NCBI GenBank assembly: GCA_028291985.1
Contig: JAQGNE010000070.1
Location: 124,001-188,000, forward strand
From: Polaromonas sp.
Lineage (GTDB): Bacteria; Pseudomonadota; Gammaproteobacteria; Burkholderiales; Burkholderiaceae_C
DNA length: 64,000 bases
Direction of reading: 5' to 3'
Shown one piece after another: positions 4,391 to 59,488 of the stretch. Both the position numbers and the translations under genes were made by a program. The number at the start of each line of letters is the position of its first letter. The stretch's first letter is position 1. The notes beneath the pieces were generated by a model. The model ran no database searches. It was given only the letters and a program-made list of their open reading frames with translations, and had not been told where the DNA came from.

Positions 4391-4439
4391 GCTATTTTAT
4401 TAATAGCTACAGGCTAACGTCTTTATTGGTCAATAAACC
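4391..4439 (+). repeat. Dispersed 49-nt element, copy A
   Basis: Core GCTATTTTATTAATAGC (4391-4407, perfect 6-bp arms), 20-nt linker, then box GGTCAATAAACC (4428-4439). It overlaps the end of the flavoprotein gene and supplies its stop codon and last residues (NKDVSL). See the finding on the eleven-copy family. Confidence 0.8.
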
Positions 4440-5810
4440 TAAATGGCTTAAAACACCCTGCCCTGCGGCATGGCCGGTGGCAAAGCAGGCCGTCATCAGG
4501 TAGCCGCCAGTGGGCGCTTCCCAATCCAGCATCTCCCCGGCGCAATACACCGCGTGCGGCAGGTTCACGGTTTCGACCTGCCTGACCTGCAGAGTGGTGT
4601 CGTCCAGCGCTTCAAACAGCACGCCGCCAGCACTGCTGATGGCTTCGTCAATCGGCCGCGGCGCGGTCAGTGTGATCGGCAATGCCTTGATGGCATGCGC
4701 CAGCCTGACCGGGTCGTTAACGGCGGGCTTGTCGAGCATCTCGTGCAGAACGGCCGCCTTTATGCCGTCCAGGCCGAGACGGCTTTTGAGATGACTGGAC
4801 AACGAACGCGAGCCGCGTGGATGCCGCACCTCGACCAGCACCTGTTCCAGCGTCTTGCCGGGCAGTAAATCAAGCATGAAAGTGGCCTGCCCGCTGCGCT
4901 CGATTTCATCGCGCAGCAGGCTGGACGCCGCATATACCAGGCTACCCTCGACGCCGGTGGCTGTAGCCACGAATTCGCCCTTGCGGCTGAAGCTTTCCCC
5001 GCCGGAATTGGTGAAACTGACGCCAACCGATTTGAAAGGCTGGCCTGCAAACCGGCTTGAGAAATGTTCGGTCCAGCCGCTGGCCGGCGCGTCACCGCGT
5101 CCGAGCAGGTCCTTGAGAAATTCGCGCCGCGTTTCGCCCGCGCCTTCGCTGGCGCCTTCGATGGCTGCCAGGCGGGTGGGCGCAATGTCAAAACCGCAGT
5201 TTGAGGGGCGCAGCCTGGCTACTGGCACGCCTCGCGCCTGCAGCAACGGCACCCAGGCGCCGTCTGATCCCAGGCGCGCCCAGCTGGCACCACCGAGTGC
5301 CAGCACCACCGCGTCGGCTTCTACCAGCACCTCGCCCGCCGGGCCGGCAAATGCCAGCTCGCTGTCCTCGCTCCAGCCTGTCCAGCGGTGGCGCATCCGG
5401 AACTGAACGCCAGCGGTGCGCAGGCGGTGCAGCCAGGCGCGCAGCAGCGGCGCGGCCTTCATGTCTTTGGGAAACACCAGCCCTGAGCTGCCGACAAAGG
5501 TTTCGATGCCCAGTTCGGCCGCCCAGTCACGCAGCTGCTGCGGGCCAAAACCGGCCAGCAGCGCCTGCAGGCTGGCCTTGCGCGAGCCATAACGTCCGGC
5601 AAACCAGGCTGCGTCTTCCGAATGGGTAAGGTTGAGCCCGCCCCTGCCGGCCAGCAGAAACTTGCGGCCCACCGAGGGCATGGCGTCAAACACCTGCACC
5701 GACACGGCCGGGCCTGCTGCGGCGATCACCTCTGCGGCCATCAGGCCGGCTGGCCCACCGCCGATGATGGCGATGCGCCATGGCTGCTTGAGCCCTGCGT
5801 TTTCTGTCAT
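4407..5810 (-). CDS. FAD-dependent flavoprotein of the HI0933/TIGR03862 type
   Basis: A predicted flavin-dependent oxidoreductase of about 467 residues; the family (BaiN/YhiN/HI0933) binds FAD, but the substrate of this subgroup is not known. The dinucleotide-binding motif IIGGGPAGLMAAE sits near the N-terminus, followed by VGRKFLLAGRGGLNLTHSE, characteristic of the family. A second FAD contact is the C-terminal GGVLFEALDDTT / YCAGEMLDWEAPTGGYLM segment. The ATG at 5810 is chosen over an upstream TTG at 5846 because it lies close to the Rossmann motif. The last residues and stop codon come from a repeat element (copy A). No clear operon partner. Confidence 0.85.
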   Translation of the reverse strand: MTENAGLKQPWRIAIIGGGPAGLMAAEVIAAAGPAVSVQVFDAMPSVGRKFLLAGRGGLNLTHSEDAAWFAGRYGSRKASLQALLAGFGPQQLRDWAAELGIETFVGSSGLVFPKDMKAAPLLRAWLHRLRTAGVQFRMRHRWTGWSEDSELAFAGPAGEVLVEADAVVLALGGASWARLGSDGAWVPLLQARGVPVARLRPSNCGFDIAPTRLAAIEGASEGAGETRREFLKDLLGRGDAPASGWTEHFSSRFAGQPFKSVGVSFTNSGGESFSRKGEFVATATGVEGSLVYAASSLLRDEIERSGQATFMLDLLPGKTLEQVLVEVRHPRGSRSLSSHLKSRLGLDGIKAAVLHEMLDKPAVNDPVRLAHAIKALPITLTAPRPIDEAISSAGGVLFEALDDTTLQVRQVETVNLPHAVYCAGEMLDWEAPTGGYLMTACFATGHAAGQGVLSHLGLLTNKDVSL

Positions 5811-5857
5811 TGAGTCCACTGCGAATCCGTTCTGCAAAGCATTCAAGGCGGCATAAC

Positions 5858-5906
5858 GCTCTTGTTTTGATAGCTACATGCCAAGGCTGTATAAGGTCTA
5901 GTGCAT
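5858..5906 (+). repeat. Dispersed 49-nt element, copy B
   Basis: Core GCTCTTGTTTTGATAGC (5858-5874), 20-nt linker, box GGTCTAGTGCAT (5895-5906). It lies between the flavoprotein gene and the addA-like gene. Confidence 0.75.
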
Positions 5907-5983
5907 CAAATGGCTCATAAATACCAAACTGGCGATGCTCGGCCAGCACCGAGTATCCCAGACCGATGCGCCTGAGCGGCTGC

Positions 5984-8900
5984 TCAAACCACCTCCACCA
6001 GCGATCCCTGCGCGGTCAAAAACGCTGCCCTGATGTCGTCGCCAGGGTAGATCGCCCGTAGCGCGTCGCGGTAGGCCTGGATTTGCGCCACCAGTTCGGG
6101 TTTGTCTTGTGGGCGGCCAGGTGACTTGTAGTCCAGCACCCACCACTGGCCCACGTGTCCGGCGTCCTTGCGCCTGACCAGCCGGTCCAGCCGCCGTGTC
6201 TGGCCGCCGTACACCAGCTCAACCTCATTGCCCTGCCAGTCGATCACCGACGAATCCCAGGCCCAGGCTGCCTCGCCGCGCTGGATGCGCGATGCCGCGG
6301 CTGCCGCATCGGCGGCCTGCTCCGGGGAGAGATCAAACTCCCGCTGCACTGCACGCACGGCCCGGGCTCTCCTGTCGTCGGCCCAGTCCGCGGCACCTGC
6401 GCCCCATTCCAGCAAGCGGTGCATGGCCCTGCCAAGCACCGCTGGGGCCGAAACCTCAACGCTGGCGCTGGCATCTGCCGGAAATGCCACGACAACACCG
6501 GGGCTTTCGCGTCGGGCCAGCGGCGGGAGATCAGGCAGAACAAAAAAATCGTCCGCTTTCGCCGCTTTACCAGGCTCGAAAATGCTGGCTGCCTGGGCAC
6601 GAGGCTCTGCCGCTTCAGCATGGCCGCCCGCTTCGTGCATGCCGGGCTGCGCCAGTGTGTACAGCCGCTGCCACCAGCTTGAGGTGGTGGGCCGATGCGG
6701 CACGATGGACGAGATCGCCAGCGTGTTGCAGGCGCGTGTGAGGGCGACATACAGCGCATTGAGCTCTTCCCGCGCGCGGGCACGGCGCTCCAGCTCGAGC
6801 GCATCCAGCGCGCAGGCGGGCGGCCGGCTTTCGCTGACCAGAAACACAAAGCGTGTCGGCGCAGCCGCCTCGCCCGGCCATTCAATCAGCACGCTCATGC
6901 TGTCTGCCGCGCGCTCGGGGGTGTCAGCGTCCAGGATGAGCACTGCCTGCGCTTCCAGGCCTTTTGCACCATGCACCGTCAGCAGCCGCACAGCGTCAGG
7001 ATTCAGTGCAGCGGGGGCCAGCAGGCCGCCGGCTTTCAGGGCGCGAACAAAGGCATAGGGCGTTGCATAGCGGCCGCCATCCAGTTGCAAGGCGGCACCC
7101 GGCAAGGCATTGAGATTGGACAGCACCGCGCTTCGGCTGGCGGGCGGCGCGGCTGCGGCAAAGCGTGCAAGCACATCACCATGCTGATAGATGGCCTGCA
7201 GCGCATCATGCGGCGGCAGGCGGTCCACCCAGGTCTTGTATTGCATCAAAACAGGTCCCAGCCCAATCAAACCTCGGGGCCCTAGCTCTTCATTTTGTAG
7301 CAAATCAAACCACGCCTCGCCAGTAGCTGCCTTCAACAGGGCCAGCTCCACCAACGACTGGCTGTCCACACCAAAAAGGGGTGAACGCAGTACCCGGGCC
7401 ATCGACAGGTCATGCTGCGGCGACACCAGCACATCGAACAGCGCCACGATGTCCTGCACCTCGCAGCAGTCGATAAGGCTGGTTTTCTCGCCGATCTGCG
7501 CGGCAACACCACAGGCGCGCAGTTCGTCCTGCAGCGGCATCAGACAGGCGCGCTTGCGCGACAGCGCCATCACATCCCTGGGTTTGAGGCCGGCGGCGAC
7601 CTGCGCCGCAACCCACGCTGCCGCCTGCCGGGCTTCCAGCGTGCGCAGGGTGTCTTCTGGCAACTCGCGTGGTGTGACCAGGCTGTCGCGCCATGCTGTG
7701 GGTTCGGCGGCATCGCTGTCGAGGCGGGCGCCCGCTGTATTGCGCGGTATGGCGGGCAGACGGACGACGCGCCCCGCGTCGGCAGACGCACTGGTATGCG
7801 TGCGAAAGTCGGTGTAGCCGTCGTTGTCTCGGGCGTTGCCCATCACCGCATTGACCGTCGCCATCACTGCGCGGCTGTTGCGGCGTGTGTGGTCGCAGGC
7901 GAGCAGATCGCCGTCCAGCACGGTCTGCACGAATGCCTGGGCAGCGATGAAAACCTGCGGCTCGGCACGGCGAAACCGGTAGATGCTTTGCTTCGGGTCG
8001 CCCACAATGAAGACGCTGGGTGCACGGCCTGCCCCGCCGTAGCTGGACAGCCAGCTGGAGAGCGCCTGCCACTGCAAGGGGTTGGTGTCCTGGAACTCGT
8101 CGATGAGCAAATGCCTCACGCGGGCGTCCAGCCGCTCCTGCACCCAGCCGGCCAGAACCGGATCGCCCAGCATGACCAGCGCCGCGCGCTCGACATCATT
8201 CATGTCCACCCAGCTGCGCTCGCGTTTGAGCGATGTGTACTCGGCCAGCAGCAGCCGGCTCAAGCGCGCCATGCGCTGCTGGTAGTCCCAGGCTTCATGC
8301 TGCGCCCGGGCATCGGCCATGGCCAGCGCCAGGTCTTGCGCGTCCCGCACGGTAGCGATACCCGCCAGCTTGTCGCCGAACTTGCGTGCGGTCCCCTTGT
8401 CGGTCAGCAAGGCGGCGAGCATGGCGCCAACGTCAGCATTGCTCACCGCCCGTTCAAGCTCAACACCTTTGGCTGAAAAGGTGGGTGCCGACGCCCTGCC
8501 AAGTGCCTGCGCAGCCTGGAGAAAAAGTGCCCGATGCACGGGCTCGGCATCGAGCAGCTGATCAGGATGCGCAAGCCCCGCGAACAGCGGAAACTGCTCG
8601 CCAAAAGCCCTGACCGATGCATCGACCACGCCTTGCGCGTCGGCAAGCATGAATTCGGTCCGCTTGTCCAGCGCACCCTGCAGGGCCTTGTCGGCCTGGA
8701 ACCGGCCATGCATCTGCACGACCGTCTCAAAGTCGGCGCGGGCTGGGGCATCGTCCGCCAGGGCCGCGTAAAAGCGCCGCCAGACCAAGGCCTTGGCCGG
8801 GCCGTCGTCCTCCAGCAGGTCGTAGTTGAGCGGCAGGCCCAGCTGCTGCAGCGCCTCCAGCGGCGCACTGCGCAGCAAGGCGGCGAACCAGCTGTGAAAG

Positions 8901-9337
8901 GTGCGAATCTGTACCGGGCGGCCGCTGGCCAGTATCTTTTGGTACAGCGTTGAAAGCCGCTCGCGCGGCAGCGGCGAGGCATCAGGCCTGGCCTGGCTTG
9001 TCACCCCGCGTATGACGAGTTCCTGCCGCAAGGTGGCGTCATCGGCGTGGGCAAACTTTTCGAGCCATTCGTGAAGGCGCTCCCGCATCTCGCCTGCCGC
9101 TTTTTTGGTGAAGGTGATGGCCAGCACTTCATGGGGCAGGATGTCTGCAGCCTTGCCATCAGCTCCGGTGCCCTCGCCGCCTTCCAGCAAGGCACGCAGC
9201 ACACGCGAGACCAGCATCCAGGTCTTGCCTGCGCCGGCGCAGGCCTCGACCGCCACATTGCGGCGCGGGTCGCAGGCAATTGCATAGAACGCTTCGGCAG
9301 AAACCGGCTGGCCGTTATGAAAATACGCAGGATTCAT
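5984..9337 (-). CDS. addA: UvrD/RecB-type helicase-nuclease, AddA-like
   Basis: ATP-dependent helicase with a C-terminal nuclease, expected to process double-strand breaks for recombination together with the protein encoded just upstream. About 1117 residues from the ATG at 9337. Superfamily 1 helicase motifs are in order: Walker A EACAGAGKTW (about 32-41), motif Ia AITFTKKAAGEMRERL, motif II DEFQDTNPLQW (about 411), motif III GDPKQSIYRFRRAEP, motif V LLTVHGAKGLEAQAV and motif VI YVALTRAC. The PD-(D/E)XK nuclease is at the C-terminus: LGRAMHRLLEWG, RRLDRLVRR and VLDYKS (about 1067), then IQAYRDAL. A dispersed repeat (7253-7301) lies in frame within the gene. RecB is the alternative, but the partner's cysteine pattern favours AddA. 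Confidence 0.85.
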   Translation of the reverse strand: MNPAYFHNGQPVSAEAFYAIACDPRRNVAVEACAGAGKTWMLVSRVLRALLEGGEGTGADGKAADILPHEVLAITFTKKAAGEMRERLHEWLEKFAHADDATLRQELVIRGVTSQARPDASPLPRERLSTLYQKILASGRPVQIRTFHSWFAALLRSAPLEALQQLGLPLNYDLLEDDGPAKALVWRRFYAALADDAPARADFETVVQMHGRFQADKALQGALDKRTEFMLADAQGVVDASVRAFGEQFPLFAGLAHPDQLLDAEPVHRALFLQAAQALGRASAPTFSAKGVELERAVSNADVGAMLAALLTDKGTARKFGDKLAGIATVRDAQDLALAMADARAQHEAWDYQQRMARLSRLLLAEYTSLKRERSWVDMNDVERAALVMLGDPVLAGWVQERLDARVRHLLIDEFQDTNPLQWQALSSWLSSYGGAGRAPSVFIVGDPKQSIYRFRRAEPQVFIAAQAFVQTVLDGDLLACDHTRRNSRAVMATVNAVMGNARDNDGYTDFRTHTSASADAGRVVRLPAIPRNTAGARLDSDAAEPTAWRDSLVTPRELPEDTLRTLEARQAAAWVAAQVAAGLKPRDVMALSRKRACLMPLQDELRACGVAAQIGEKTSLIDCCEVQDIVALFDVLVSPQHDLSMARVLRSPLFGVDSQSLVELALLKAATGEAWFDLLQNEELGPRGLIGLGPVLMQYKTWVDRLPPHDALQAIYQHGDVLARFAAAAPPASRSAVLSNLNALPGAALQLDGGRYATPYAFVRALKAGGLLAPAALNPDAVRLLTVHGAKGLEAQAVLILDADTPERAADSMSVLIEWPGEAAAPTRFVFLVSESRPPACALDALELERRARAREELNALYVALTRACNTLAISSIVPHRPTTSSWWQRLYTLAQPGMHEAGGHAEAAEPRAQAASIFEPGKAAKADDFFVLPDLPPLARRESPGVVVAFPADASASVEVSAPAVLGRAMHRLLEWGAGAADWADDRRARAVRAVQREFDLSPEQAADAAAAASRIQRGEAAWAWDSSVIDWQGNEVELVYGGQTRRLDRLVRRKDAGHVGQWWVLDYKSPGRPQDKPELVAQIQAYRDALRAIYPGDDIRAAFLTAQGSLVEVV
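7253..7301 (-). repeat. Dispersed 49-nt element, copy I (inside the addA-like gene)
   Basis: On the minus strand: core GCTACAAAATGAAGAGC (7301-7285), 20-nt linker, box GGGCTGGGACCT (7264-7253). Its box matches that of copy C. It is translated in frame as part of LLQNEELGPRGLIGLGPVL. The core is diverged, so this copy is less certain than others. Confidence 0.55.
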
Positions 9338-9411
9338 GGGGCAGTTGTCATCCGGTTCAAGCCGCTGTGGACGCGGGGCGGGGCGGGGCGATCGAACGTA
9401 AGGGCACGCCG

Positions 9412-11949
9412 TCACCAGAAGTCCTTGCGGCACAAGCCGCGCGCCGCGCAATAGGCGCATGCGGTACCTTCGCCCAACGCCGGCAACGGTGCAGCATGCT
9501 CAATGCGCGCCATGTCGGCCAGGATGCTGTCGATCAGCTGGTCGCGAAGCGCCACGATGTCGTCCTGGGCAAAGGTCTTGGTAGGCTCCTTCTCGCCCAG
9601 GTTGATATAGGCGGCAGTCAGCGTGTCGTCTTCCAGCAAAGCGGCATAAAAGGCCAGCTGGGTGTCTTCCTGAGCGTCCTTGATGCGCGCCTGCGTGACG
9701 GTGCGGCCTTCGGTCTTGTAGTCCATCAGCAGGTGGCTGCCGTCGGCGCAGCGGTCAATGCGGTCGATTTTTCCAACCAGCGAGAGCGTACCCAAAGGCA
9801 TTTCTTTCCAGACCTCGCCCTCATGAAACTGCGCGCCTGCCGCTTCATGCGCTGCCAGCCACTCCAGATAGCCGGCCCTGGTGCGGGGCCAGATGGCCGC
9901 GAAAGGCAAAAACTCGCTATCGGTTAGGCCCAGCTCGGCCTTCGCTTCATCAGCTGCTATGTTAATCATAGCTATACGCCCTTGCATCGACTGGGCTGGC
10001 ACCGCTTTCAGTGCTTCATGAAAGCGGTAGAGCAGCTGATGCAGCCAGTTGCCGAACTCGCGTTTGCCCAACTCGCTTTCCAGCTCTTCCGATGCCTGCA
10101 GGCCGAGCTGGCGCAAGGCAAAAAAACGGTAGGGGCAGCGCCGCAGGTCTTCATAAGCGCTGGCAGACAGTCGCTTGACCGGCACCGCCTCGCCCGTCGG
10201 TGCCGGAAACAGCGTGGCTTTCAAGGCAACGCTGCGGCCAATGCGGGGATCGCATGCGTGGTCGGGCGAATGCTGCAGGCGCACCTCCTGCACAAAGCCG
10301 CTCGGCATCAGGCGCTCCCCGGCTTCGCTGGTGCGCCAGAGCACATCGATATGCGGCAGGCACAAGGCGTAGTTCCAGGCTGCGCGCTGGGCGCTGGCGG
10401 TTTCCTCACGGGACGGCAGCCCCAACACTGCCCGCTGCGCAGGTGTCCAGCCGCCCGGCGGCTCTGGCGATACCGCCAGCCGCACTTCATCTGCGCCGGG
10501 AAGCACCACTGCCTGCATGGGCCGGCCCAGGAGCTGGCTGAGCGGCAGGATGATGACCTGGGGCGCATCGGCATGGTCGGGCGAAAAATTCGCGGCCTCC
10601 AGCGTGTGATTGACCCAGCTGGTGAAGTCCTGCAGCGTCATGCGGACCTCGGGCAGCGGCGGCGACCCATCAGGCGTATCGGCCTGCCCTGCCCAGCCCA
10701 GCCGCAGCGCTTCAATGACCTTTGCGCCCGCGGTATCGGCCTCCAGCGGCGCCCACTGGCCAGCCAACTCAAGGGCGGCGCGCAGACCCGTCAGCCAGCT
10801 GGCCAGCGTTCGCGTCTTTTGCAGGCCATCACGCACGCCAGCCACCAATGCAACAGTCTGTCGGGTGCCTTCGTCTGCCACCAGCATGCGCCAGTACCGA
10901 AGGCCAGCCTTGCGCAGCGCCACCTCGACCGCCCGGGTCTGGCGGGCATCGCAGGCCGGTGCATTTTTCAGCCAGTCAAGCACGGCATCAGAAGATGCAT
11001 CCCAGGGCAATGCGCGCAGCAGGCTCATCACAGCAGCAGCAGCGCGAGTGGTCGACAACTTCCAGCCGGTTTCATCGCGCAGCGCCACCTGCTGCTCTGC
11101 CAGGATGGCATGCACGCGGCGCGTGAGCAGCCGGTCTTGCGCAATCAGCGCAACCGGGCTTCGCTGAGCGGCCAGGTGGGCCATGACGCATGCGGCTGCG
11201 CGGTGCGCCTCGTCTTCGGTGTCAATCGCCTCATGCAGCGCCAGCAGGCCGGTCGATGCAGGCGGCAAAAGTTCCAGCAGCAGCGCGCGCGGGCCAAAAT
11301 GAGCCTTCAGCGCCTTGACCAATGGCTCCGACTGGAAGCCTTCCATCAGAACGAGCATATCCAGGTGATCAGCCGCCTCGGGGGTGAACAGGACATCGGA
11401 CGGGTAAGCGGATGTCGCCGCCCATATCAGCGCGATTCGGCCCAGGGCCAGTTCGAGCGCAAGCGCCGGGGCCTGCAATCCGGCGTTGAGTTCTGCAGCC
11501 AGGCGGCTGCCCCAGGCCAGCCGGTCGGCTGGCGCCTGTGCAGCTGCCACCCGGGCCAGCGACCAGGCTGATTCCAGCAGGCGCCCGGCCAGCGTGTGCT
11601 GCTGGGCGCCAAGGCCGGCACGGGCCAGCAGGGATGATGCGGTGAGTATGTCGATCGCCGCGTCCATACGCATGTCATCGCCCGTCGCGGGCATGGCGCC
11701 GCCACTGGCAAGCAGGCCGGCTGCCCAGGTCATGCTGGTTTGGAACTGGGGAACAAAAGTGGCGGTCGCGCCTTTTTGTTCAATGCACAGCGACCACGCA
11801 GCGCGGGCATGCGGGATCAGCTGCGCATACGGCACCAGAACCATCGTGCGCGAAGGATGCGCGCCGTCATGCGCCAGCATGTCGGCCAGGCGGTGCATGG
11901 CCTGGCACCAGTGTTCTTTTTCGGTCTCGTCAGTCATCGGGGAGCGCAT
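9412..11949 (-). CDS. addB: AddB-like nuclease with inactive-type helicase fold and Fe-S cluster cysteines
   Basis: Partner of the helicase-nuclease encoded 74 bases downstream. About 845 residues (or 841 from the second ATG at 11937). The C-terminal third is a PD-(D/E)XK nuclease: LSASAYEDLRRCPYRFF (Cys about 603), KIDRIDRCADG, LLMDYKTEGR (about 739) and EDTQLAFYAALL. Three more cysteines close the protein (C831, C834, C840, in CAYCAARGLC). One Cys before and three after the nuclease is the 4Fe-4S arrangement known for AddB. No intact Walker A is visible at the N-terminus. The order addB-addA is the common one. A repeat element (9956-10004) sits in frame. Confidence 0.82.
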   Translation of the reverse strand: MRSPMTDETEKEHWCQAMHRLADMLAHDGAHPSRTMVLVPYAQLIPHARAAWSLCIEQKGATATFVPQFQTSMTWAAGLLASGGAMPATGDDMRMDAAIDILTASSLLARAGLGAQQHTLAGRLLESAWSLARVAAAQAPADRLAWGSRLAAELNAGLQAPALALELALGRIALIWAATSAYPSDVLFTPEAADHLDMLVLMEGFQSEPLVKALKAHFGPRALLLELLPPASTGLLALHEAIDTEDEAHRAAACVMAHLAAQRSPVALIAQDRLLTRRVHAILAEQQVALRDETGWKLSTTRAAAAVMSLLRALPWDASSDAVLDWLKNAPACDARQTRAVEVALRKAGLRYWRMLVADEGTRQTVALVAGVRDGLQKTRTLASWLTGLRAALELAGQWAPLEADTAGAKVIEALRLGWAGQADTPDGSPPLPEVRMTLQDFTSWVNHTLEAANFSPDHADAPQVIILPLSQLLGRPMQAVVLPGADEVRLAVSPEPPGGWTPAQRAVLGLPSREETASAQRAAWNYALCLPHIDVLWRTSEAGERLMPSGFVQEVRLQHSPDHACDPRIGRSVALKATLFPAPTGEAVPVKRLSASAYEDLRRCPYRFFALRQLGLQASEELESELGKREFGNWLHQLLYRFHEALKAVPAQSMQGRIAMINIAADEAKAELGLTDSEFLPFAAIWPRTRAGYLEWLAAHEAAGAQFHEGEVWKEMPLGTLSLVGKIDRIDRCADGSHLLMDYKTEGRTVTQARIKDAQEDTQLAFYAALLEDDTLTAAYINLGEKEPTKTFAQDDIVALRDQLIDSILADMARIEHAAPLPALGEGTACAYCAARGLCRKDFW
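9956..10004 (+). repeat. Dispersed 49-nt element, copy C (inside the addB-like gene)
   Basis: Core GCTATGTTAATCATAGC (9956-9972, perfect 6-bp arms with G/C in place of T/A), 20-nt linker, box GGGCTGGCACCG (9993-10004). On the gene's strand the core encodes the run AMINIAA. Confidence 0.75.
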
Positions 11950-11984: not shown

Positions 11985-12033
11985 GCTATCGGTGCGATAG
12001 CTGCTGTGCCGGTCAAACCTGCTTTGGGTGGCG
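11985..12033 (+). repeat. Dispersed 49-nt element, copy J
   Basis: Core GCTATCGGTGCGATAGC (11985-12001, perfect arms GCTATC/GATAGC). The linker and 3' box are poorly conserved. It lies between the divergent addB-like gene and trxA. Confidence 0.55.
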
Positions 12034-12438: not shown

Positions 12439-12463
12439 AACTCTCGGCCGCCGCGGGCTTGAA

Positions 12464-16422: not shown

Positions 16423-17801
16423 GTCCCGCAAAACCAGTGAGCGAAATCAAGCTCATCGGCCGGCATGCCGGCACCGTGCTCATCGGTCAGCTTGCGGTCA
16501 TGGCGTTCGGGGTCGCCGATACCGTCATCGCCGGACGCTACAGCGATGCCGCGCTGGCGGCGCTATCGGTGGGGTCAGCACTCTACGTCAGCGTCTATAT
16601 CGGCCTGATGGGCATTGTCCAGGCCCTGCTCCCCATCTGGTCCGAGATGCTGGGCTCGGCCAGGCATGAAGCCATGGGGAGGTCGTTGCGGCAAAGCCTT
16701 TACCTGTGCATTCCACTGACGGCGGTCGGTATGTCGGCCCTGCTGTTTCCGGCCCCCCTGCTGCGCTGGGCGGACGTGCCTGATGCCATGCGGCAAGAGG
16801 TGACGCACTATCTGGCCGTGCTGGCCTTCGCTTTCGCACCGTCGCTGCTGTTTCGCATCTACAGCAGTTTCAACCAGTCGCTGGGCAAGCCCTTGCTGGT
16901 GACCTGGCTTCAGGTTCTGGCGCTCATGGTGAAGATACCGCTGTCTATCTGGTTTGTGGCGGGTGGGGCCGGCTTGCACCCAATGGGCGCCGTCGGTTGC
17001 GCATGGGCCACGCTGGCAGTCAACGTCATGCTCATGGTTATGGCCCTGGCCATGCTTCGTTCGCAGGCCATCTACAAGCCCTTTGCCCTGTGGCAGCAGA
17101 TGGAAGCCCCGGATTGGCGGCAAATCCGGGATTTCCTGCGGCTCGGCGTACCTGCCGGCCTGGCCTATATGGTCGAGGTCACGTCATTCACCCTGATGGC
17201 GCTCTTCATTGCCCGATTGGGCACGGAAGCGTCGGCCAGCCACCAGATAGCTGCGAGCGTGGCCGCGCTGCTCTACATGATGCCCTTGTCGATCTCGATT
17301 GCGAGCAGCAGCCGGGTGTCGTTCTGGCTGGGCGCTGGCCGGCCAGACGCCGCCCGCGCGGTAGTTTTAATGTCTTTAAGGCTTCTAGCCCTTATCTCTA
17401 TTGGACTAGCAGCTACGCTTTTCATAGCAAAAAGCCTTATCGCCGGCGTCTATTCAGAAAATCCGGATATTGTGCTGATCGGCTCCAGCCTGCTGGTCTG
17501 GGTGGCTGTTTACCACCTGGCCGATGCCTTGCAGGCTCTGTGTGCGTTTTTGCTCCGCTGCTATCGCATCACCCTGGCACCGCTGCTGTTGTACGGTGTG
17601 CTGATGTGGGGACTGGGGCTTTACGGCGGCTATCAGCTGACCTACGCCGGAATCGCAGGCTGGCCGCCCACTGGCTCACCGGGAAGCTTCTGGATTGCCA
17701 GCACAGTGGCCATCGTGATGGTTGCCGCCTGCTTGCTGGTGCTGTTGCGCCAAACGATGCGGCGCAGTCTGAAAGGCGCCTGCGCGCTGACAGCGGCATG
17801 A
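16419..17801 (+). CDS. MATE-family efflux transporter
   Basis: Multidrug/toxin extrusion protein of 460 residues with twelve predicted helices in two halves, cation-coupled. It begins with a GTG that overlaps the upstream stop (GTGA). Family features include GQLAVMAFGVADTVIAGRYS near the N-terminus, with a similar second half around GVPAGLAYMVEVTSFTLMALFIARLG. One transmembrane helix (about residues 321-340, MSLRLLALISIGLAATLFIA) is encoded by an inserted dispersed repeat (copy D). Being coupled to a membrane glycosyltransferase-like gene, it might act on that product; this is only inference. Confidence 0.88.
   Translation: MSPAKPVSEIKLIGRHAGTVLIGQLAVMAFGVADTVIAGRYSDAALAALSVGSALYVSVYIGLMGIVQALLPIWSEMLGSARHEAMGRSLRQSLYLCIPLTAVGMSALLFPAPLLRWADVPDAMRQEVTHYLAVLAFAFAPSLLFRIYSSFNQSLGKPLLVTWLQVLALMVKIPLSIWFVAGGAGLHPMGAVGCAWATLAVNVMLMVMALAMLRSQAIYKPFALWQQMEAPDWRQIRDFLRLGVPAGLAYMVEVTSFTLMALFIARLGTEASASHQIAASVAALLYMMPLSISIASSSRVSFWLGAGRPDAARAVVLMSLRLLALISIGLAATLFIAKSLIAGVYSENPDIVLIGSSLLVWVAVYHLADALQALCAFLLRCYRITLAPLLLYGVLMWGLGLYGGYQLTYAGIAGWPPTGSPGSFWIASTVAIVMVAACLLVLLRQTMRRSLKGACALTAA
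17380..17428 (-). repeat. Dispersed 49-nt element, copy D (inside the MATE gene)
   Basis: On the minus strand: core GCTATGAAAAGCGTAGC (17428-17412), 20-nt linker, box GGGCTAGAAGCC (17391-17380). It lies in frame in the transporter and encodes a hydrophobic helix. Confidence 0.75.
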
Positions 17802-30321: not shown

Positions 30322-30419
30322 GGTGTTGACCGGTTAATGCTGCAAACCTCGGCACGCCGTCTGGCTCAACTGTGATGCATAGTCGCTGAAATGTTGGAGC
30401 ATTATTTATAAACGAAAAT

Positions 30420-30468
30420 GGTCTCTAGACCAATCCCTGATTGGACCTATCGCTATTGATAAAGTAGC
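30420..30468 (-). repeat. Dispersed 49-nt element, copy K
   Basis: On the minus strand: core GCTACTTTATCAATAGC (30468-30452, one G-T pair), 20-nt linker, box GGTCTAGAGACC (30431-30420, self-complementary arms GGTC/GACC). It lies 80 bases before arsB. Confidence 0.75.
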
Positions 30469-30548
30469 ATACACAACGATGCAGAACGCCTCTTGATAGC
30501 GGCCGAATTGGCTGCTGGTCTGCTGAAAACCAAACCCACTGGATTGCC

Positions 30549-33850: not shown

Positions 33851-33899
33851 GCTATCAAATAAATAGCTATCACGCCTGTTGGAAAGACCTTGTGGCGGA
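33851..33899 (+). repeat. Dispersed 49-nt element, copy E
   Basis: Core GCTATCAAATAAATAGC (33851-33867, five of six arm pairs). The linker and 3' box (33888-33899) are diverged. It lies in the gap before the GNAT gene. Confidence 0.55.
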
Positions 33900-46961: not shown

Positions 46962-47009
46962 GTCTGGTTCCCAGTAGATGATCGGTTGAAGGCGTGGACG
47001 GTGCCGTTT

Positions 47010-47058
47010 GCTCTTACTTTAATAGCTACAATGCCACGTATTTGATGGGCCGGAGCCC
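47010..47058 (+). repeat. Dispersed 49-nt element, copy F
   Basis: Core GCTCTTACTTTAATAGC (47010-47026), 20-nt linker, box GGGCCGGAGCCC (47047-47058, perfect arms GGGC/GCCC). It lies within the otn operon, between otnC and otnI. Confidence 0.75.
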
Positions 47059-47087
47059 GATTTAATCATTATTTTTCTCATCAGCGG

Positions 47088-47759
47088 CTACCAGCGCGCG
47101 CCAAAAACCTGGCGCAATTCCTCAACCTGCGTTTCCTCCAGCGCAGCGAGCGCGCTGCCGTGACCCAGCGCCAGGCTCGCAGTTTCTTCGAGTTCTTCCA
47201 GCGTGGCCATCGCCGCAGACGGGCTTTCATGCCAGACATTCGGGCCAAGGCGGGCCAGCATCACCGCGCGTAGCGGCGTGCCGAGTTGGCCGTAGCGGGT
47301 GATCACCTCACCCACCGCCTGGGCCCCCACCGGGTCGCCAGGGCGGCAATAGGCGACCACCGGCACGCGGCCGACCTTCATCACGAAATAGGGCGTCAAG
47401 GCAGGCAACAATTCGCTGCCATGGGCACGAAGCGTCAGCTGCACGCATGACCTGCTGTGGGTGTGGATCACGCAGCTGGTTTTGGCATCAAAAGGCCTGC
47501 TAGCCGAATAGATACGCTGGTGAAGCGCTATGGTTTTACTGGCACGATCGCCGCTGGTCTGCGCCCCATTAGCATCCAGCCGTGCCAGTCGGGCGGGGTC
47601 CAGAAAGCCCAGGCAGGCATCGCTTGGTGTAATCAAGACGCCGCCGTCATCCAGCCTGACACTGATATTGCCGGCCGTGGCATGCACATACCCCCGGTCA
47701 AACAGGCTTTTGCCAACCCGGCAAATCTCGTCGCGCGCCTGGTTTTCGCTGCTGATCAT
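47088..47759 (-). CDS. otnC: 3-oxo-tetronate 4-phosphate decarboxylase (class II aldolase family)
   Basis: Decarboxylates the phosphorylated keto acid to dihydroxyacetone phosphate. 223 residues. The class II aldolase/adducin fold shows RGYVHATAGNISVRLDDGG (phosphate site), LITPSDACLGFL, zinc ligands CVIHTHSRSC (HxH) and the active-site region HESPSAAMATLEELEETA. Its start overlaps the otnK stop (ATGA). L-fuculose-phosphate aldolase is the general family, but context gives OtnC. Confidence 0.92.
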   Translation of the reverse strand: MISSENQARDEICRVGKSLFDRGYVHATAGNISVRLDDGGVLITPSDACLGFLDPARLARLDANGAQTSGDRASKTIALHQRIYSASRPFDAKTSCVIHTHSRSCVQLTLRAHGSELLPALTPYFVMKVGRVPVVAYCRPGDPVGAQAVGEVITRYGQLGTPLRAVMLARLGPNVWHESPSAAMATLEELEETASLALGHGSALAALEETQVEELRQVFGARW

Positions 47760-52086: not shown

Positions 52087-52303
52087 GCGTTGCGCTCAGC
52101 AGCGCAGATGTCGGTGCATGCGCAGCTGACAAACCTGCTCGCGCTTGTCCATCGAAAGTCGTCCGTCTGTCGATGAGTTTTTACTCTCGTTGACGGTTCG
52201 GCATCATGCGGGATGGCTTGGCAATCTGCCGGGTATTTACCTAGCCGCAACGGCGACTGAGGCCATACCATAAGTACGCTTATCAGTTTTGAGAGACAAA
52301 CTC

Positions 52304-53293: not shown

Positions 53294-53294
53294 C

Positions 53295-54293: not shown

Positions 54294-54302
54294 CCACCGT
54301 TC

Positions 54303-54351
54303 GCTATTTTTTCAATAGCTAGATCCCCTTTACTTATATCGGCCGGAGGCC
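54303..54351 (+). repeat. Dispersed 49-nt element, copy G
   Basis: Core GCTATTTTTTCAATAGC (54303-54319, perfect arms), 20-nt linker, box CGGCCGGAGGCC (54340-54351, arms GGCC/GGCC). The box is followed by TTTTTCCTT, so this copy could also serve as an intrinsic terminator for the upstream pair of genes. Confidence 0.8.
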
Positions 54352-54401
54352 TTTTTCCTTAATATTTCAGGCAACTGCCGAGCAAAATCCGGCGCCGGGC
54401 T

Positions 54402-56663
54402 TCACGCGCTGCCGCCAGCGGCAGCAGGGCTGAAGCTGTCTGCGCCAGCCTTGGAAGGCCTGGCTCCCCTGACCACCGCGTCGATGGTGCGCATCAGCAC
54501 ATCAGGGTCAACCGGCTTGACCAAATGCGCATCAAAACCAGCCGCTGTAGCGGCCATCCTGTCGCTCATCTGGCCGTAACCCGTCAGCGCAATGAGCGGA
54601 ATGCCGCGCACCAGCGGTTCGGCGCGCAAGCGGCGGGCAACTTCATAACCGCTGATGTCGGGCAGGCCGATATCCATCAGCACCACGTCGGGTTGCGCCG
54701 CCAGAACTGCAGGCAGCGTGCTGCCGCCGTCTTCAATCTCGATCACGTCGCAGCCCGAAAAACGCAGAAGCTCGCCAAGGGCCATGCGTGCGTCCTGGTT
54801 GTCTTCTACATATACCAGCTTGAGCTGGCCGCTGAAAGGAGCCGCCTCATCGGCATCAGCAGCAGGCTGGGCCGCCACGCTGGGCAACCAGAAAGAGAAC
54901 ACGCTGCCGCGGTTTGCACCTTCGCTGAAGGCAGATACATCGCCGCCATGCAGCTGCACCAGGCGCCGGACCAGCGCCAGCCCTATGCCCAGCCCGCTTT
55001 GCAGGCGGTTCAGCGGTGCAGGCCCTTGCACGAAGGGCTCAAAAACAGACTCCAGCAAATCTGCCGCCATACCAATGCCGGCGTCCGTCACCGACACCAC
55101 CGCCCTGCCAGCTTGCTCACCTACCGCCACCCGGATTTCTGCGCCTGGCGGCGAGAACTTCAGCGCATTCGTCAACAGGTTGTTGAGGATCTGGTCCAGG
55201 CGCACCCGGTCGGCCGCGACCCATACCGGGCTGGCGTCCACCGCGATCCCATGCGCGCTAGCACGCTCGGTCAGGCGTAGCGCGTCGATGCAGCGCATGG
55301 CGGTTTCGGCCAGTTCAAGCGGTGCCTTGTCCAGCGTGATTTTTCCAGCCATCAGCCGGCTGACATCCAACAGGTCATTGACGATATGGCTCAAATGCTG
55401 GTTCTGCCGGCTGATGATCGCCACGCAGCGTGCTGACAGGCCCTGGTCGTGCCCCTTTTTTTGCAGCAGCTGGGTTGCGCCCGCGATGGCCGCCAGCGGG
55501 TTTCTGAGCTCATGCCCCAGCATCGCGAGGAACTCGTCCTTGGCAATATTTTGCGCCTGGGCCGCTTCACGCGCCGAGGTTTCGTTGGCCAGCAGTTGCT
55601 CACGCTCGGTCTCGGCGGCCTGGCGCGACTGGCGCTCGATCTGCAACAGATGGCTTGCATCCTGCAGCGAGCGGTTCAGCTCACCGATTTCGTCAATCGA
55701 GGTCTTGACCAGCACCGGCCGGTGTCCGTGCCCCAACAGGCGCGCAGAGCGGCTGGCGCTCTCGATGGCGCGGATGAAGCTTCGTCCGAAAACCAGCACC
55801 GCAATCGCTGCGATGCCCATCGCCGCGACCATGCCCGCCAGCGCCACCCGCATCGCACGCTCGGCCGCCGCTTCAATCGTGGCGACTGGGGCGGCGATGG
55901 CAACCGTCCAGCCGGTGAGCGAGGAATGCGCAAACGCATCGTAGGAGTCAACGCCCTCGATTGTGCTGTGACGAATCAGCCCATCGCGGGCTTGTGCCGC
56001 TGCCGCCACCAACTCGGCGCGGGCGGGCTTGCCCAGAAGTTCATTGGAGCGGTGGCTGCGGGATATGAAGTTTCCCTGACGGTCGATGACTGCCACCACC
56101 CAGTCTGCCGGCAGATCGCGCTGCAAGGCCTTGCGCTTCCAGTAATCAACCGAGAAGGCTTGCGCCACTACAAACTTCTTGCCGCCGCGTGCGCTTACCG
56201 GCGCATACAGCGTGGTCAGCATCCGGCCGGTAACCGGACCTGCAAAAACATCGGTCACCAGCGGGGCCTGCGTACGGATGACTTTTTGCACGTGCTCGCG
56301 TGCTACGACAACTGGAGGTGGCGTTCCGAAAGGAACCACCGTGTTCAATACCTGCCTGCCGGTGTCATCCAGCAAAAGCGTCCAGACGTCAGGCAGCTGG
56401 TTCATGACTTCGGCCTGCAGGTAGAAAGCCGCAAAGTCACCGGTTTCAAGATGTCGTGAGTGCCCGACAACCTTGAGGCCGGTGATCGAGCCCTGCACTT
56501 CACGGTCAACGATCAGCGCTGTGGCCCTGACGGTTTCACGCAATCCGCGCAGAGCAGCCTGGCGCTCGCCTTCCCGGATTTTCTCAAGCCCCCAGCTGGT
56601 GGCGGCAATAACCGGAAGCAGGACGGCAGTTGCCATCACCAGCAGCTGGGTACGAATCTTCAT
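54402..56663 (-). CDS. Hybrid sensor histidine kinase/response regulator
   Basis: A 753-residue membrane kinase. TM1 (about 5-24), a periplasmic Cache-like sensor (about 25-270, with QLPDVWTLLLDDTGRQVLNT), TM2 (VALAGMVAAMGIAAIAVLVF, about 275-295), HAMP, a coiled coil, HisKA FLAMLGHELRNPLAAI (His about 374), HATPase with LNNLLTNALKFSPPG, DAGIGM and GLGIGLALVRRL, and a C-terminal receiver with VVLMDIGLPDISG (Asp about 658) and HLVKPVDPD. No partner regulator lies nearby, so the output is unknown. The relic at 3107-3860 looks like a decayed relative. Confidence 0.9.
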   Translation of the reverse strand: MKIRTQLLVMATAVLLPVIAATSWGLEKIREGERQAALRGLRETVRATALIVDREVQGSITGLKVVGHSRHLETGDFAAFYLQAEVMNQLPDVWTLLLDDTGRQVLNTVVPFGTPPPVVVAREHVQKVIRTQAPLVTDVFAGPVTGRMLTTLYAPVSARGGKKFVVAQAFSVDYWKRKALQRDLPADWVVAVIDRQGNFISRSHRSNELLGKPARAELVAAAAQARDGLIRHSTIEGVDSYDAFAHSSLTGWTVAIAAPVATIEAAAERAMRVALAGMVAAMGIAAIAVLVFGRSFIRAIESASRSARLLGHGHRPVLVKTSIDEIGELNRSLQDASHLLQIERQSRQAAETEREQLLANETSAREAAQAQNIAKDEFLAMLGHELRNPLAAIAGATQLLQKKGHDQGLSARCVAIISRQNQHLSHIVNDLLDVSRLMAGKITLDKAPLELAETAMRCIDALRLTERASAHGIAVDASPVWVAADRVRLDQILNNLLTNALKFSPPGAEIRVAVGEQAGRAVVSVTDAGIGMAADLLESVFEPFVQGPAPLNRLQSGLGIGLALVRRLVQLHGGDVSAFSEGANRGSVFSFWLPSVAAQPAADADEAAPFSGQLKLVYVEDNQDARMALGELLRFSGCDVIEIEDGGSTLPAVLAAQPDVVLMDIGLPDISGYEVARRLRAEPLVRGIPLIALTGYGQMSDRMAATAAGFDAHLVKPVDPDVLMRTIDAVVRGARPSKAGADSFSPAAAGGSA

Positions 56664-56896
56664 TCGCGGAATTTTTACATGAACTGCTGCCCACGCGGCT
56701 TCGGTCGGCCTGCTGGTGTCGGGTCAGTGACAATTTGACACGCCAGAAGTGATGGCGCTGTGTGGCTGCGGCTGTTAGAGCCGGCAGCGCATCGACGGCA
56801 GATGCTCTCGCATCCTTCATTTCTACGCTTTTGATACCTACCCCTTTATTTTCCTAGCCCTTCATCACTTTCGTTCTGAATTTTTCACCTGCATCG

Positions 56897-58525
56897 TCAG
56901 GATGCTCTCCAGGCTTCCATACGCGGTGCGCCCGCCTCGCCCGCTGCATCAGGCAGCCAGTGCCGGGTGACGCCGTTGGTCCAGCCGAAGCCGTCCTGCA
57001 AGGGATATTCACCGCCACCGCCGCCGCATGGCTGCTCACTAAGCGACTCACGCAGATTGTATTTTTCAACCAGACGACCTTCGTGCGCATAGACCGCACA
57101 AACCGCCTGCATCCATCGGCTACGTATCTCGCTGGCGATAACAGCAAGGCCGTAATCGTGGAATCCCTTTGCAGCCATGTACTGCAGCGGCGCCCAGCCA
57201 TTGGGCCGGTCCCACTGCTGGCCGCTGGCGCATTCGGTGGTGGCCAGCCCGCCCGGCACCAGCAGGCGGCGGCGCACCGTATCCGCTAGCCGGCTTGCAT
57301 GGTCGCTGCTGGCCATACCGGCAAAGAGCGGCGCCACCGTGGCCGCGGTAAGACACCGGCGCTGGGTGCCGCGCATCCAGTCATGGTCAAAGTAAGCGCC
57401 TTCGCTCTCGTTCCACATCAGCTGGTCAACCGCTTCGCGGCGCAATGCTGCACGATGCGCAAAATCGCCGGCCAGGGCATGGTCGCCGCCCTCTTCGCTC
57501 AGGCGGGCAATGGTCGTTTCAAGCCGGTACATCAATGCGTTGAGGTCAACCGGCAGGATACGGGTGGTGCATATCTGTGGCAGTGACAGGCTTTCAGGCC
57601 TTGCCGGGTCGGGCTCATGCAGCCATCGGGTGCTGAAGTCCCAGCCGGATTCGGCCGCGGCGCGCAGGTCGCGGTAAACCTCGCTGGCCGGCCTGTTGGC
57701 CAGGGCGGCGGTGGCCACGTCTTCACGCCATGATTCCTCACGCGGCGTGTCGCGGTCGTCCCAGTAGCGGTTAAGCAGCTGCCCGCCGGGCAGTCGCACC
57801 GCCCGGCGAAAACACCGGCCGGCTTTCAGGGCGTCGGCACCATCCATCCACCAGGCATGCTCTTGCCGGAGTTGCGGCAGGTACATCCGCGCGGCCTGCC
57901 CGCCGCAGGCCTCGCACAACTCCACCATCAGCGAAAACACAGGCGGCTGCGAGCGGCTCAGGTAATAGGTGCGGTTGCCGTTGGGCACGTGCCCATAGGT
58001 GTCGATCAGGTAAGCAAAGTTGTCGGTTATCGCGTGCACCAAGGGGTCGCAGCGCCCGGCTAGGCCCAGCACGGTGAAGTACGAGTCCCAGTAGTACAGC
58101 TCGACAAAGCGGCCGCCTGGCACCAGGTAGGCATGTGGCAGGGCCAGCAACGAGCCGCCTGCGGGATGGGCAACCGGCTCACGCGTGAGCACGGGCCATA
58201 ACTGATCGATATGCACCGCCAGCGGCTGGTCAGTTTTGGACACGTAGCCGCCGGGTTCAGCATAGGGGGGCGTGAAATGTCGGTGTACGAAAGCGGCGAG
58301 GTCAAAACCGGGCTGCAGCCGCTCGGCGCGGTAGGCAGCCAGTATCTGGGCCGGCGGCATGCGCGGTGCGCAGTCGACAAAAGTCTTGGAGTCCTGAAAG
58401 ACCCAGGCGCGCTGCACATCGACAAACAGCTCCTGATAGCGGTCAGCCGGTGTGTAGATGTCGGGCGGCGGGCAGACATCTGCCTGCTGGCGGCGCGCGC
58501 CCGGCTCGGCATTGAAAGCGCTCAT
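56897..58525 (-). CDS. treF: Cytoplasmic-type trehalase (GH37)
   Basis: Hydrolyses trehalose to two glucoses. 542 residues without a signal peptide, which argues for TreF rather than periplasmic TreA. Both GH37 signatures are present: PGGRFVELYYWDSYF (about 132-146) and QWDRPNGWAPLQY (about 436-448), plus the glycine-rich GGGGGEYPLQDGFGWTNGV near 498. DTYGHVPNGNRTYYLSRSQP is also typical. Its start overlaps the stop of the upstream SDR gene by four bases, showing an operon. Confidence 0.94.
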   Translation of the reverse strand: MSAFNAEPGARRQQADVCPPPDIYTPADRYQELFVDVQRAWVFQDSKTFVDCAPRMPPAQILAAYRAERLQPGFDLAAFVHRHFTPPYAEPGGYVSKTDQPLAVHIDQLWPVLTREPVAHPAGGSLLALPHAYLVPGGRFVELYYWDSYFTVLGLAGRCDPLVHAITDNFAYLIDTYGHVPNGNRTYYLSRSQPPVFSLMVELCEACGGQAARMYLPQLRQEHAWWMDGADALKAGRCFRRAVRLPGGQLLNRYWDDRDTPREESWREDVATAALANRPASEVYRDLRAAAESGWDFSTRWLHEPDPARPESLSLPQICTTRILPVDLNALMYRLETTIARLSEEGGDHALAGDFAHRAALRREAVDQLMWNESEGAYFDHDWMRGTQRRCLTAATVAPLFAGMASSDHASRLADTVRRRLLVPGGLATTECASGQQWDRPNGWAPLQYMAAKGFHDYGLAVIASEIRSRWMQAVCAVYAHEGRLVEKYNLRESLSEQPCGGGGGEYPLQDGFGWTNGVTRHWLPDAAGEAGAPRMEAWRAS

Positions 58526-59289
58526 TGTTCGCTGTAGTTCCAGAGCAGCCCGCCGTCCACCACGCTGGTGGAGCCGGTCATGTAATCGGCATCGGTTGAC
58601 GCCAGAAACGCCACCAGTCCGGCAACGTCGGATGCAGCCCCGAGACGGCCGAGCGGTATCTGCGCCTTCAGGGCCCCCAGCTTCTGCTCATCCTGCAGCA
58701 GCGACGCGTTGATCGGCGTGCGAATCGCCCCTGGCGCGACATTGTTGACGGTGATGCCCAGCGGCGCCAGCTCGATGGCAAGGTTGCGCATCAAGAGCTT
58801 CAGCCCGCCCTTGCTGGCGCAGTACGGCGCAAAGTTCGGAAAGGGCAGCTCTTCATGCACCGAGCTGATGTTGATGACCTTGCCCGGCCTGCCTGCCTTT
58901 CGCAGCGCCCGTGCAAAAGCCTGTGTCAGGAAAAATGGGCCTTTGAGGTTGACATCCAGCACCTGGTCATAGGCCTTTTCCTCCACCTCCAGAAATGGCG
59001 TGTGGTGCTCGATCCCGGCGTTGTTGACGAGGATGTCAAGGTGAGGGAAGAGCCCGCAGGCCTGCTCGACCAGCGTACGGACGGCTTCCACCCGGGAGAC
59101 ATCTGCCTGCAGCACCTCGCAGCGCCGTCCGCATGCGCGGATGGCTTCGGCAACAGCACGTGCCCGCTCATCGTCATGCAACACGTTCAGGGCGATGTCA
59201 GCGCCTTCTGCGGCCAGCCGCCGGGCGATGGCTTCGCCGATACCTTGTCCTGCGCCGGTGATGAGCGCTACCTTGTCGGTGAGTTTCAT
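58522..59289 (-). CDS. SDR-family oxidoreductase, glucose 1-dehydrogenase-like
   Basis: Classical short-chain dehydrogenase of 255 residues from the ATG at 59289 (MKLTDKVALITGAGQGIG). NAD(P) site TGAGQGIG, NNAGIEHHTPFLEVEEKA, and the catalytic Ser-Tyr-Lys in INISSVHEELPFPNFAPYCASKGG. VNNVAPGAIRTPIN and the C-terminal YMTGSTSVVDGGLL match glucose 1-dehydrogenases. Being translationally coupled to trehalase, oxidation of the released glucose is a sensible guess; the specificity is not provable from sequence. Confidence 0.88.
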   Translation of the reverse strand: MKLTDKVALITGAGQGIGEAIARRLAAEGADIALNVLHDDERARAVAEAIRACGRRCEVLQADVSRVEAVRTLVEQACGLFPHLDILVNNAGIEHHTPFLEVEEKAYDQVLDVNLKGPFFLTQAFARALRKAGRPGKVINISSVHEELPFPNFAPYCASKGGLKLLMRNLAIELAPLGITVNNVAPGAIRTPINASLLQDEQKLGALKAQIPLGRLGAASDVAGLVAFLASTDADYMTGSTSVVDGGLLWNYSEQ

Positions 59290-59439
59290 CACCGGTGGAC
59301 GGCGATTGGGGCAGCGAGTTCCCGCGGCATGCACCGTACGGGGCATATCAGGCCAACTGCCGTCCGCGTCCTACACGCAGCCTCTGGGCTGACCGCACAG
59401 GCAGCCCATCAACGAGCCCATCAACAGATGCCCAAGTTT

Positions 59440-59488
59440 GCTCATTATTTAATAGCTAACCGTCCATGTACCTGCTGGTCTAGAGGCT
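59440..59488 (+). repeat. Dispersed 49-nt element, copy H
   Basis: Core GCTCATTATTTAATAGC (59440-59456), 20-nt linker, box GGTCTAGAGGCT (59477-59488). It lies in the 259-base gap between the SDR gene start and the ygiQ stop. Confidence 0.75.

What the first reader, a model, noticed from the sequence alone, without database searches (positions are those of the whole stretch)
4391..59488. An eleven-copy dispersed element with fixed architecture: 17-nt stem-loop, 20-nt linker, 12-nt box
Seen directly: copies at 4391-4439, 5858-5906, 7253-7301 (-), 9956-10004, 11985-12033, 17380-17428 (-), 30420-30468 (-), 33851-33899, 47010-47058, 54303-54351 and 59440-59488. Each has a 17-nt core of the form GCTxxx-5 nt-xxxAGC. 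After exactly 20 nt, most carry a 12-nt box such as GGTCTAGAGACC, GGGCCGGAGCCC or CGGCCGGAGGCC. Arms covary: GCTATT/AATAGC, GCTATG/CATAGC, GCTATC/GATAGC in the core, and GGTC/GACC, GGGC/GCCC, GGCC/GGCC in the box. This suggests selection on structure or recent spread of a folded unit. The 11985 and 33851 copies lack a clear box and 7253 has a diverged core. I recall similar AT-rich hairpins in other Comamonadaceae but cannot name a described family.
Basis: partly seen in the sequence, partly recalled or inferred. Interest (0 to 1): 0.85.

Follow-up and report, generated by a model that had tools for sequence, protein, structure and literature searches.

The report
Genome-wide 66-bp DNA signal in Polaromonas
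A DNA signal of about 66 bases is scattered hundreds of times over this Polaromonas-type chromosome, sometimes inside genes without changing protein length, and relatives keep it at the same places in the genes examined, which points to a genome-wide DNA mark of unknown purpose rather than a folded RNA or a recently jumping element.

Summary
The repeat is real. Nine of the 11 listed copies are confirmed with a profile built outside the window; two are not. The unit is larger than described: one ungapped block of about 69 bp with sharp edges. The own genome, in the genus of Polaromonas, has 361 matches to a fixed-spacing pattern against 21 for the reversed control, roughly 430 copies.

The structural reading fails for the core and the box: core arms are nearly invariant and do not covary; one pair of the middle block does. 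The unit looks like a double-stranded DNA site: an A-tract switches strand (AAA or TTT), 20 of 85 copies lie in coding sequence in both orientations, and 21 of 21 tested genic copies beat synonymous recoding. In a MATE gene 30 of 92 homologous loci carry it at the same codons with no net length change. No pair of copies looks recently duplicated.

Within its order it exceeds control only in one family, patchily, with dialects. Fragments were printed in 2017 as unexplained motif pairs. Best guess: a site maintained in place, perhaps by uptake-type drive; its reader protein is unknown.

The parts
4387..4455 (+). copy of the 66-69 bp site, overlapping the 3' end of an HI0933-like gene (4407-5810, minus)
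   Evidence: 55.5 bits with a profile trained outside the window; gene, Pfam
5854..5922 (+). copy of the site, intergenic
   Evidence: 50.7 bits; gene
7237..7305 (-). weaker copy inside the UvrD/AddA-like gene (5984-9337, minus), sense
   Evidence: 32.3 bits; no synonymous recoding of 2000 reaches it; Pfam
9952..10020 (+). copy inside the AddB-like PDDEXK gene (9412-11937, minus), antisense; the domain match runs through it without room for an insert
   Evidence: 39.7 bits; PDDEXK_1 residues 593-841 against profile 1-247
17364..17432 (-). copy inside the MATE transporter gene (16437-17801, plus), antisense, in place
   Evidence: 52.5 bits; 92 of 92 homologous loci have no net length difference here
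30404..30472 (-). copy between the polyphosphate kinase and arsB genes (divergent)
   Evidence: 43.7 bits; Pfam
47006..47074 (+). copy, intergenic between two minus-strand genes
   Evidence: 45.4 bits; gene
54299..54367 (+). copy between convergent genes; best match in the window
   Evidence: 64.0 bits; gene
59436..59504 (+). copy 44 bp after the stop of a radical-SAM gene (59549-61936, minus)
   Evidence: 51.5 bits; Pfam; from the offsets, 7 of 19 relatives have a hit within about 140 bp of this gene's 3' end, two of them weak (13.8 and 16.9 bits)
   Evidence: not recovered; 6.2 bits
   Evidence: partial 16.1 bits; not recovered

Best explanation
It is a composite double-stranded DNA recognition site of about 66 bp: a dyad core GCTAT-N7-ATAGCT, a CCC/GGGC block ending 20 nt on, TAGAGGC, then A/T tracts. 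It acts on the chromosome in either orientation and is kept where it stands, in intergenic gaps, loops and tolerant coding segments. Shown: copy number, fixed spacing, lack of core covariation, A-tract strand switching, presence inside coding sequence beyond what protein sequence explains, shared positions in three genes across the genus (without length change at the MATE site), dialects, and absence of recent duplicates. Inferred: a sequence-specific DNA-binding protein reads it. Inferred and least certain: it accumulated by the in-place, recombination-fed drive proposed for DNA uptake sequences, i.e. it marks own DNA for uptake or exchange.
For: 361 pattern hits against 21 control. 20 of 85 copies above 25 bits lie in CDS, 11 antisense and 9 sense. 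21 of 21 tested CDS copies beat 2000 synonymous recodings. In ten synonymous permutations of all called genes the best score per set was 9.7-25.1, with 22 positions above 10 in the ten sets together, while one observed set has 21 hits above 10, 18 of them above 25.1. MATE site: 30 of 92 loci score 5.8-48.7, the other 62 score -13.5 to -119.2, with zero net length difference in all 92. MoeA: 14 of 26 relatives score 29.9-68.2 at the place; MnmE: 7 of 25 score 11.9-35.1 (places matched by offset). Columns 57-59 are AAA or TTT in 93 of 112 all-A/T copies against 45 expected. No recent copies. Information of about 60 bits in 89 selected copies far exceeds the roughly 14 bits that my arithmetic gives for placing 430 sites. 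Dialects. ComEC is present in 23 of 23 high-copy genomes tested, which is compatible only.
Against: No binding protein was found. ComEC is also present in 21 of 22 low-copy genomes, so it does not discriminate. 66 bp and 60 bits is far longer than any uptake sequence I know of (recalled). The middle block is an inverted repeat in several genera and its pair 30-44 covaries, which a hairpin would also give. Pairwise identities spread more widely than in any of 200 column shuffles (sd 0.069 against 0.054), so copies are not fully independent draws. The MoeA site sits in a loop that is shorter in several relatives without it, which fits insertion as well. Spacing is not significantly more even than random (P 0.095 and 0.36). 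Helical phasing of A/T content is weak (p about 0.04 at 10.5-11 bp, while 7.5-8 bp gives p 0.01).
Confidence: 0.4

Rival explanations
1. Binding site of a nucleoid or chromosome-organising protein that wraps about six turns of DNA; maintained by selection on chromosome structure rather than by uptake.
For: Same dsDNA features: invariant dyad core, A-tract switching, both orientations, about 430 copies spread over many contigs; avoidance of divergent gaps, 7 elements in 17.4 kb against 20 in 8.7 kb of convergent gaps.
Against: Hits fall to zero in some members of genera whose other members have 162-264 (g72), odd for a housekeeping function; excess information.
Confidence: 0.27
2. Old REP-like or MITE-like mobile element, formerly moved by a RAYT (Y1 transposase), now fixed and decaying or co-opted.
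For: The one Y1 gene of the own genome has a copy about 120 bp upstream; in G239 and G307 copies flank the Y1 gene on both sides; 71 of 81 genomes with at least 40 core hits have a Y1 match against 221 of 318 others (my hand count); sharp edges; loop insert in MoeA; inverted repeat in the middle block of several genera.
Against: In-place site without length change (MATE 92 of 92); genus g21 has 109-197 hits per genome while four of its five genomes have no Y1 match; no recent duplicates; only 3 of the 14 Y1 loci checked in element-bearing genomes have a copy within about 300 bp.
Confidence: 0.23
3. Bidirectional transcription terminator or other RNA element at gene ends.
For: Median distance to 3' ends 39.5 bp against 81.5 bp to 5' ends; 20 elements in 41 convergent gaps of 66 bp or more; a T-tract often follows the box.
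Against: Between tandem genes it lies antisense 25 times and sense 10 times; AAA replaces TTT in 22 of 122 copies; 20 of 85 lie inside genes; no core covariation.
Confidence: 0.07
4. Chance resemblance or compositional artefact.
For: Two of the 11 listed places are not supported.
Against: Controls.
Confidence: 0.01

Closest known systems
Spaced motif pairs of Tong et al. 2017 (PMC5217627): ATAGCT(N)22CAAAAG in Polaromonas naphthalenivorans CJ2 and GCTTAT(N)5AAGCG in Acidovorax ebreus TPSY
   Same: ATAGCT falls at columns 18-23 of our frame and the second half at columns 46-51, where four of its six letters agree with our consensus CTAGAG; GCTTAT(N)5AAGCG falls at columns 30-45 of copy L310:10100 letter for letter. 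Similar mix of intergenic and genic copies and many convergent gaps (search passages and section 13 read).
   Different: Reported there as two unconnected unexplained pairs; the full unit, family range, dialects and in-place coding sites are added here. Their two genomes were not fetched here.
DNA uptake sequences (Neisseriaceae DUS, Pasteurellaceae USS)
   Same: Many copies, no strand rule, 65% (H. influenzae) or 35% (N. gonorrhoeae) inside reading frames, proposed to accumulate in place in tolerant regions (PMC1939737, passages read); dialects (PMC3630211, seen in a listing only).
   Different: 10-12 bp (DUS) or a short core with A/T flanks (USS), lengths recalled, against 66 bp; uptake not tested.
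REP / REPIN elements with RAYT
   Same: Hundreds of copies, partly palindromic, 3'-end preference, a RAYT-like gene near a copy in three genomes (general features recalled; listing).
   Different: In-place coding sites, no covarying stem in the core, genomes without a Y1 match.
BRE, Betaproteobacterial repeat element (Hot et al. 2011, PMC3110155)
   Same: Dispersed, mainly intergenic, also reported from Polaromonas, Rhodoferax and Acidovorax.
   Different: About 90 bp, Bordetella copies 69% GC on average, tandem arrays, at most 29 copies in a genome at their threshold (section 14 read); ours is A/T-rich and mostly solitary. The two were not aligned.

Membership tests
Motif pairs of Tong et al. 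2017 | Two short words at the stated spacing | tested here: inconclusive
   Register agrees by inspection: the Acidovorax pair letter for letter in one g86 copy, the Polaromonas pair with 10 of 12 letters against our consensus; the two genomes themselves not fetched
DNA uptake sequence | Over-represented motif, part inside coding sequence, no strand rule | tested here: met
DNA uptake sequence | Copies arise in place, not by copying | tested here: inconclusive
   No recent duplicates and MATE in place, but the MoeA loop gains length and intergenic copies are not resolved
DNA uptake sequence | Enhances uptake or transformation; cognate receptor | not testable with these tools
   ComEC present in high- and low-copy genomes alike
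REP/REPIN-RAYT | RAYT present in genomes with the repeat | tested here: not met
   Four of five g21 genomes have no Y1 match but carry 109-197 hits; 71 of 81 high-copy genomes do have one
REP/REPIN-RAYT | Stem with compensatory changes | tested here: inconclusive
   Core and box do not covary; middle pair 30-44 does, and the middle block is an inverted repeat in several genera
REP/REPIN-RAYT | Extragenic | tested here: not met
   20 of 85 copies above 25 bits inside CDS
BRE | About 90 bp, GC-rich, tandem arrays | tested here: not met
   Length, composition and spacing differ; no direct alignment
Intrinsic terminator | GC-rich hairpin followed by a U-tract in the sense strand of the upstream gene | tested here: not met
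   25 antisense against 10 sense in tandem gaps; AAA and TTT interchange
Any Rfam family | Match above gathering score at a copy | tested here: not met
   The only match in the window is the small SRP RNA at 1676-1772

The most novel reading that the evidence does not exclude
A 66-bp self-DNA mark of Comamonadaceae: an uptake/exchange signal several times longer than any known one, with dialects among genera, that recurs in dozens of genera and has reshaped coding segments in place, at least in Polaromonas.
Probability: 0.25. Interest if true: 0.9.

Novelty: new variant of a known kind. Interest (0 to 1): 0.68.

Why it matters
It covers close to 1% of a chromosome by my estimate, constrains codon choice inside genes, and is abundant in 35 genera of one family, with differing dialects among the eight genera looked at. 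If it is an uptake signal it gives a further lineage in which self-recognition in transformation can be studied; if it is an architectural site it points to an unknown chromosome-organising protein. A pull-down with one duplex would be a direct first test.

Tried and rejected
RNA or ssDNA fold: RNAalifold found 3 invariant pairs and no covariation; per-pair shuffles and structure counts likewise for core and box. A swap test on the middle block gave 14 of 1000, and pair 30-44 held up with other genera, so a dyad or hairpin there is not excluded.

Simple insertion: rejected for the MATE site. TruB and AddB matches leave little or no room for an insert. MoeA, NAD synthetase and RsmJ matches show extra length and the aminopeptidase match breaks at the site, so insertion remains possible there and the family may have mixed origins. 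MnmE looked like an insertion from its profile matches but aligned in place with relatives apart from about four residues.

RAYT as driver: see rivals. Uptake through ComEC presence: uninformative. Even spacing and 10.5-bp phasing: not significant or weak.

Intergenic empty/filled sites could not be settled: genus members are too far apart for intergenic alignment. Papers opened without use: PMC2755013 (passages, only CRISPR repeats).

Rows dropped: from the 33-row alignment A3, L005 was dropped for A4 and the model; L004, L013, L014 and L017 (second readings of palindromic cores or unclear orientation) were never aligned; 2 of 91 hits dropped as duplicates from overlapping stretches; 2 of 23 CDS copies dropped for overlap under 60 bases. 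One search keeps only copies with set letters at columns 23 and 46-48. The stretches were chosen near known hits, so densities from them are too high; the window was not chosen so by me. The 92 MATE loci include genomes fetched in both (four such pairs among the 30 positives and further ones among the rest).

Full report
What was checked. The window is G000:C88:124001-188000 of a 3.58-Mb, 94-contig genome at 97% completeness. Its genus contains named Polaromonas: the MATE locus of same-genus genome G337 has the same site sequence, identity and contig length as the record of Polaromonas sp. CG_9.7. The pattern GCTATN7ATAGCT hits this genome 169 times against 2 for the reversed pattern. Aligning 33 copies gave an ungapped block, and a sequence-only model from 32 of them found 150 hits, the number that search scored.

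Copies in the window. With a profile trained only on copies outside the window, nine of the 11 listed places score 32-64 bits, the best of 20 shuffles 1.7 bits; 11985 and 33851 are not recovered. Three of the nine lie inside genes (AddA-like, AddB-like, MATE) and one overlaps a gene end.

How many. A fixed-spacing pattern (GCT N10 TAGC N20 GGNC) has 361 hits against 21 for its control and finds 66 of 85 copies known from the surveyed stretches, so about 430 copies, one per 8 kb. The base composition profile drops to background right outside columns 2-70, so the unit has sharp edges.

Not a folded core. In 134 copies from eight genera the outer core pairs are invariant and the inner ones pair no more than shuffled; the box shows no convincing covariation; pair 30-44, C-G in most copies and G-C in others, covaries. 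Counts on A4 give 72.8% paired cells against 72.0% shuffled. Direct tests of T-A to C-G at pair 10-18 give p 0.21 and 0.17. Columns 57-59 switch as a block between TTT and AAA, which is odd for an RNA signal but natural for an A-tract in duplex DNA. Against this, the middle block is a clear inverted repeat in copies of g86, g89, g5 and g21, so a dyad or hairpin there is possible.

Inside genes. I called genes on 463 kb with a simple codon model and found 89 distinct copies, 66 intergenic and 23 overlapping genes; above 25 bits these are 65 and 20. 21 of 21 testable genic copies beat every one of 2000 synonymous recodings. Ten synonymous permutations of all genes gave best scores of 9.7-25.1, while 18 of 21 observed hits above 10 exceed 25.1. 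In the MATE gene 92 homologous loci align with no net length difference at the site; 30 of them score 5.8-48.7 and the rest -13.5 or lower, a clean gap; some genomes occur twice in these numbers. So the motif lies over an old coding segment and is not an insert there. In MoeA the site fills a loop that is shorter in several relatives lacking it; 14 of 26 relatives score 29.9-68.2 at that place. In MnmE it sits in a variable loop; 7 of 25 relatives score 11.9-35.1, five of them above the permutation maximum. Profile matches suggest extra length around some other genic copies. Mixed origins cannot be excluded.

No recent copying. Among 122 copies of this genome the closest pair is 78% identical, inside the range of the best pair in column-shuffled sets (71-80%). 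The spread of identities is wider than in any of 200 shuffles (sd 0.069 against 0.054), so columns are not fully independent; the strongest links are between neighbouring columns.

Where. Convergent gaps are favoured (20 elements in 8.7 kb) and divergent ones avoided (7 in 17.4 kb); the element lies nearer to gene 3' ends. Between tandem genes it is antisense 25 times and sense 10 times, binomial p 0.017.

Range. In 399 genomes of the family 183 have at least one core hit; by my hand count of the table 81 genomes in 35 genera have 40 or more. Some genera hold both extremes: g72 has 162, 0, 232, 0 and 264. In an order-wide draw of 300 genomes, 291 of them outside the family, no outside genome has more than 6 hits, a level that the reversed control also reaches or exceeds in that draw; nothing beyond the order was searched this way. 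Copies from other genera keep the core, spacing and tail but change the middle block, for example GCGCTT...AAGCGC or AGGCAATAAATACGCCGG.

RAYT. The own genome has one Y1 transposase gene with a copy upstream, and two g32 genomes have copies on both sides. Elsewhere the link is loose: genus g21 has 109-197 hits per genome while four of five genomes have no Y1 match (three of these four are known only by their absence from the list of matching genomes).

Prior print. Tong et al. 2017 list two motif pairs that fall in register with this unit in Polaromonas naphthalenivorans and Acidovorax ebreus, without function and without linking them (search passages and section 13 of PMC5217627). Further searches showed no other description among the rows listed, in an open-licence library only. 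BRE (PMC3110155, section 14) differs in size, composition and arrangement. A text search of the REP survey PMC3733652 for six names of the family found none.

Judgement. The safest statement is a maintained double-stranded DNA site read by an unknown protein. Excess information (about 60 bits in selected copies), in-place coding sites, dialects and lack of recent copies fit uptake-type drive best, but nothing here tests uptake, and ComEC does not discriminate. An architectural site and an old RAYT-borne element remain live.

Noticed in passing
window 1676-1772 (+): Small SRP RNA, 59.7 bits, the only Rfam match above gathering score in the window.
   Followed up: no
L062:3982-4683 (+), G000:C48: Single Y1 transposase (RAYT-like, 233 aa) found in the own genome, with an element copy about 120 bp upstream on the other strand.
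   Followed up: partly
L444:5994-6064, inside ORF 4098-6131 (+): A phage contig carries the motif (50.9 bits) inside a gene that matches terminase large subunit (phrog_15), beside a portal gene: phages of such hosts may bear the site too.
   Followed up: partly
L154:2226-2296: The motif lies over the conserved TruB domain; the TIGR00431 match leaves only about four extra residues.
   Followed up: partly
MoeA loci such as L255:2276-2346 (-) and L260:2279-2349 (-): Several Polaromonas relatives have a second, opposite-strand hit (9-33 bits) elsewhere in the same moeA gene, where the own genome has none above 8 bits.
   Followed up: no
window 47478-47548 (-): Weak candidate (16-23 bits) inside a class II aldolase-type gene, below the best synonymous-permuted score; not claimed.
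   Followed up: no
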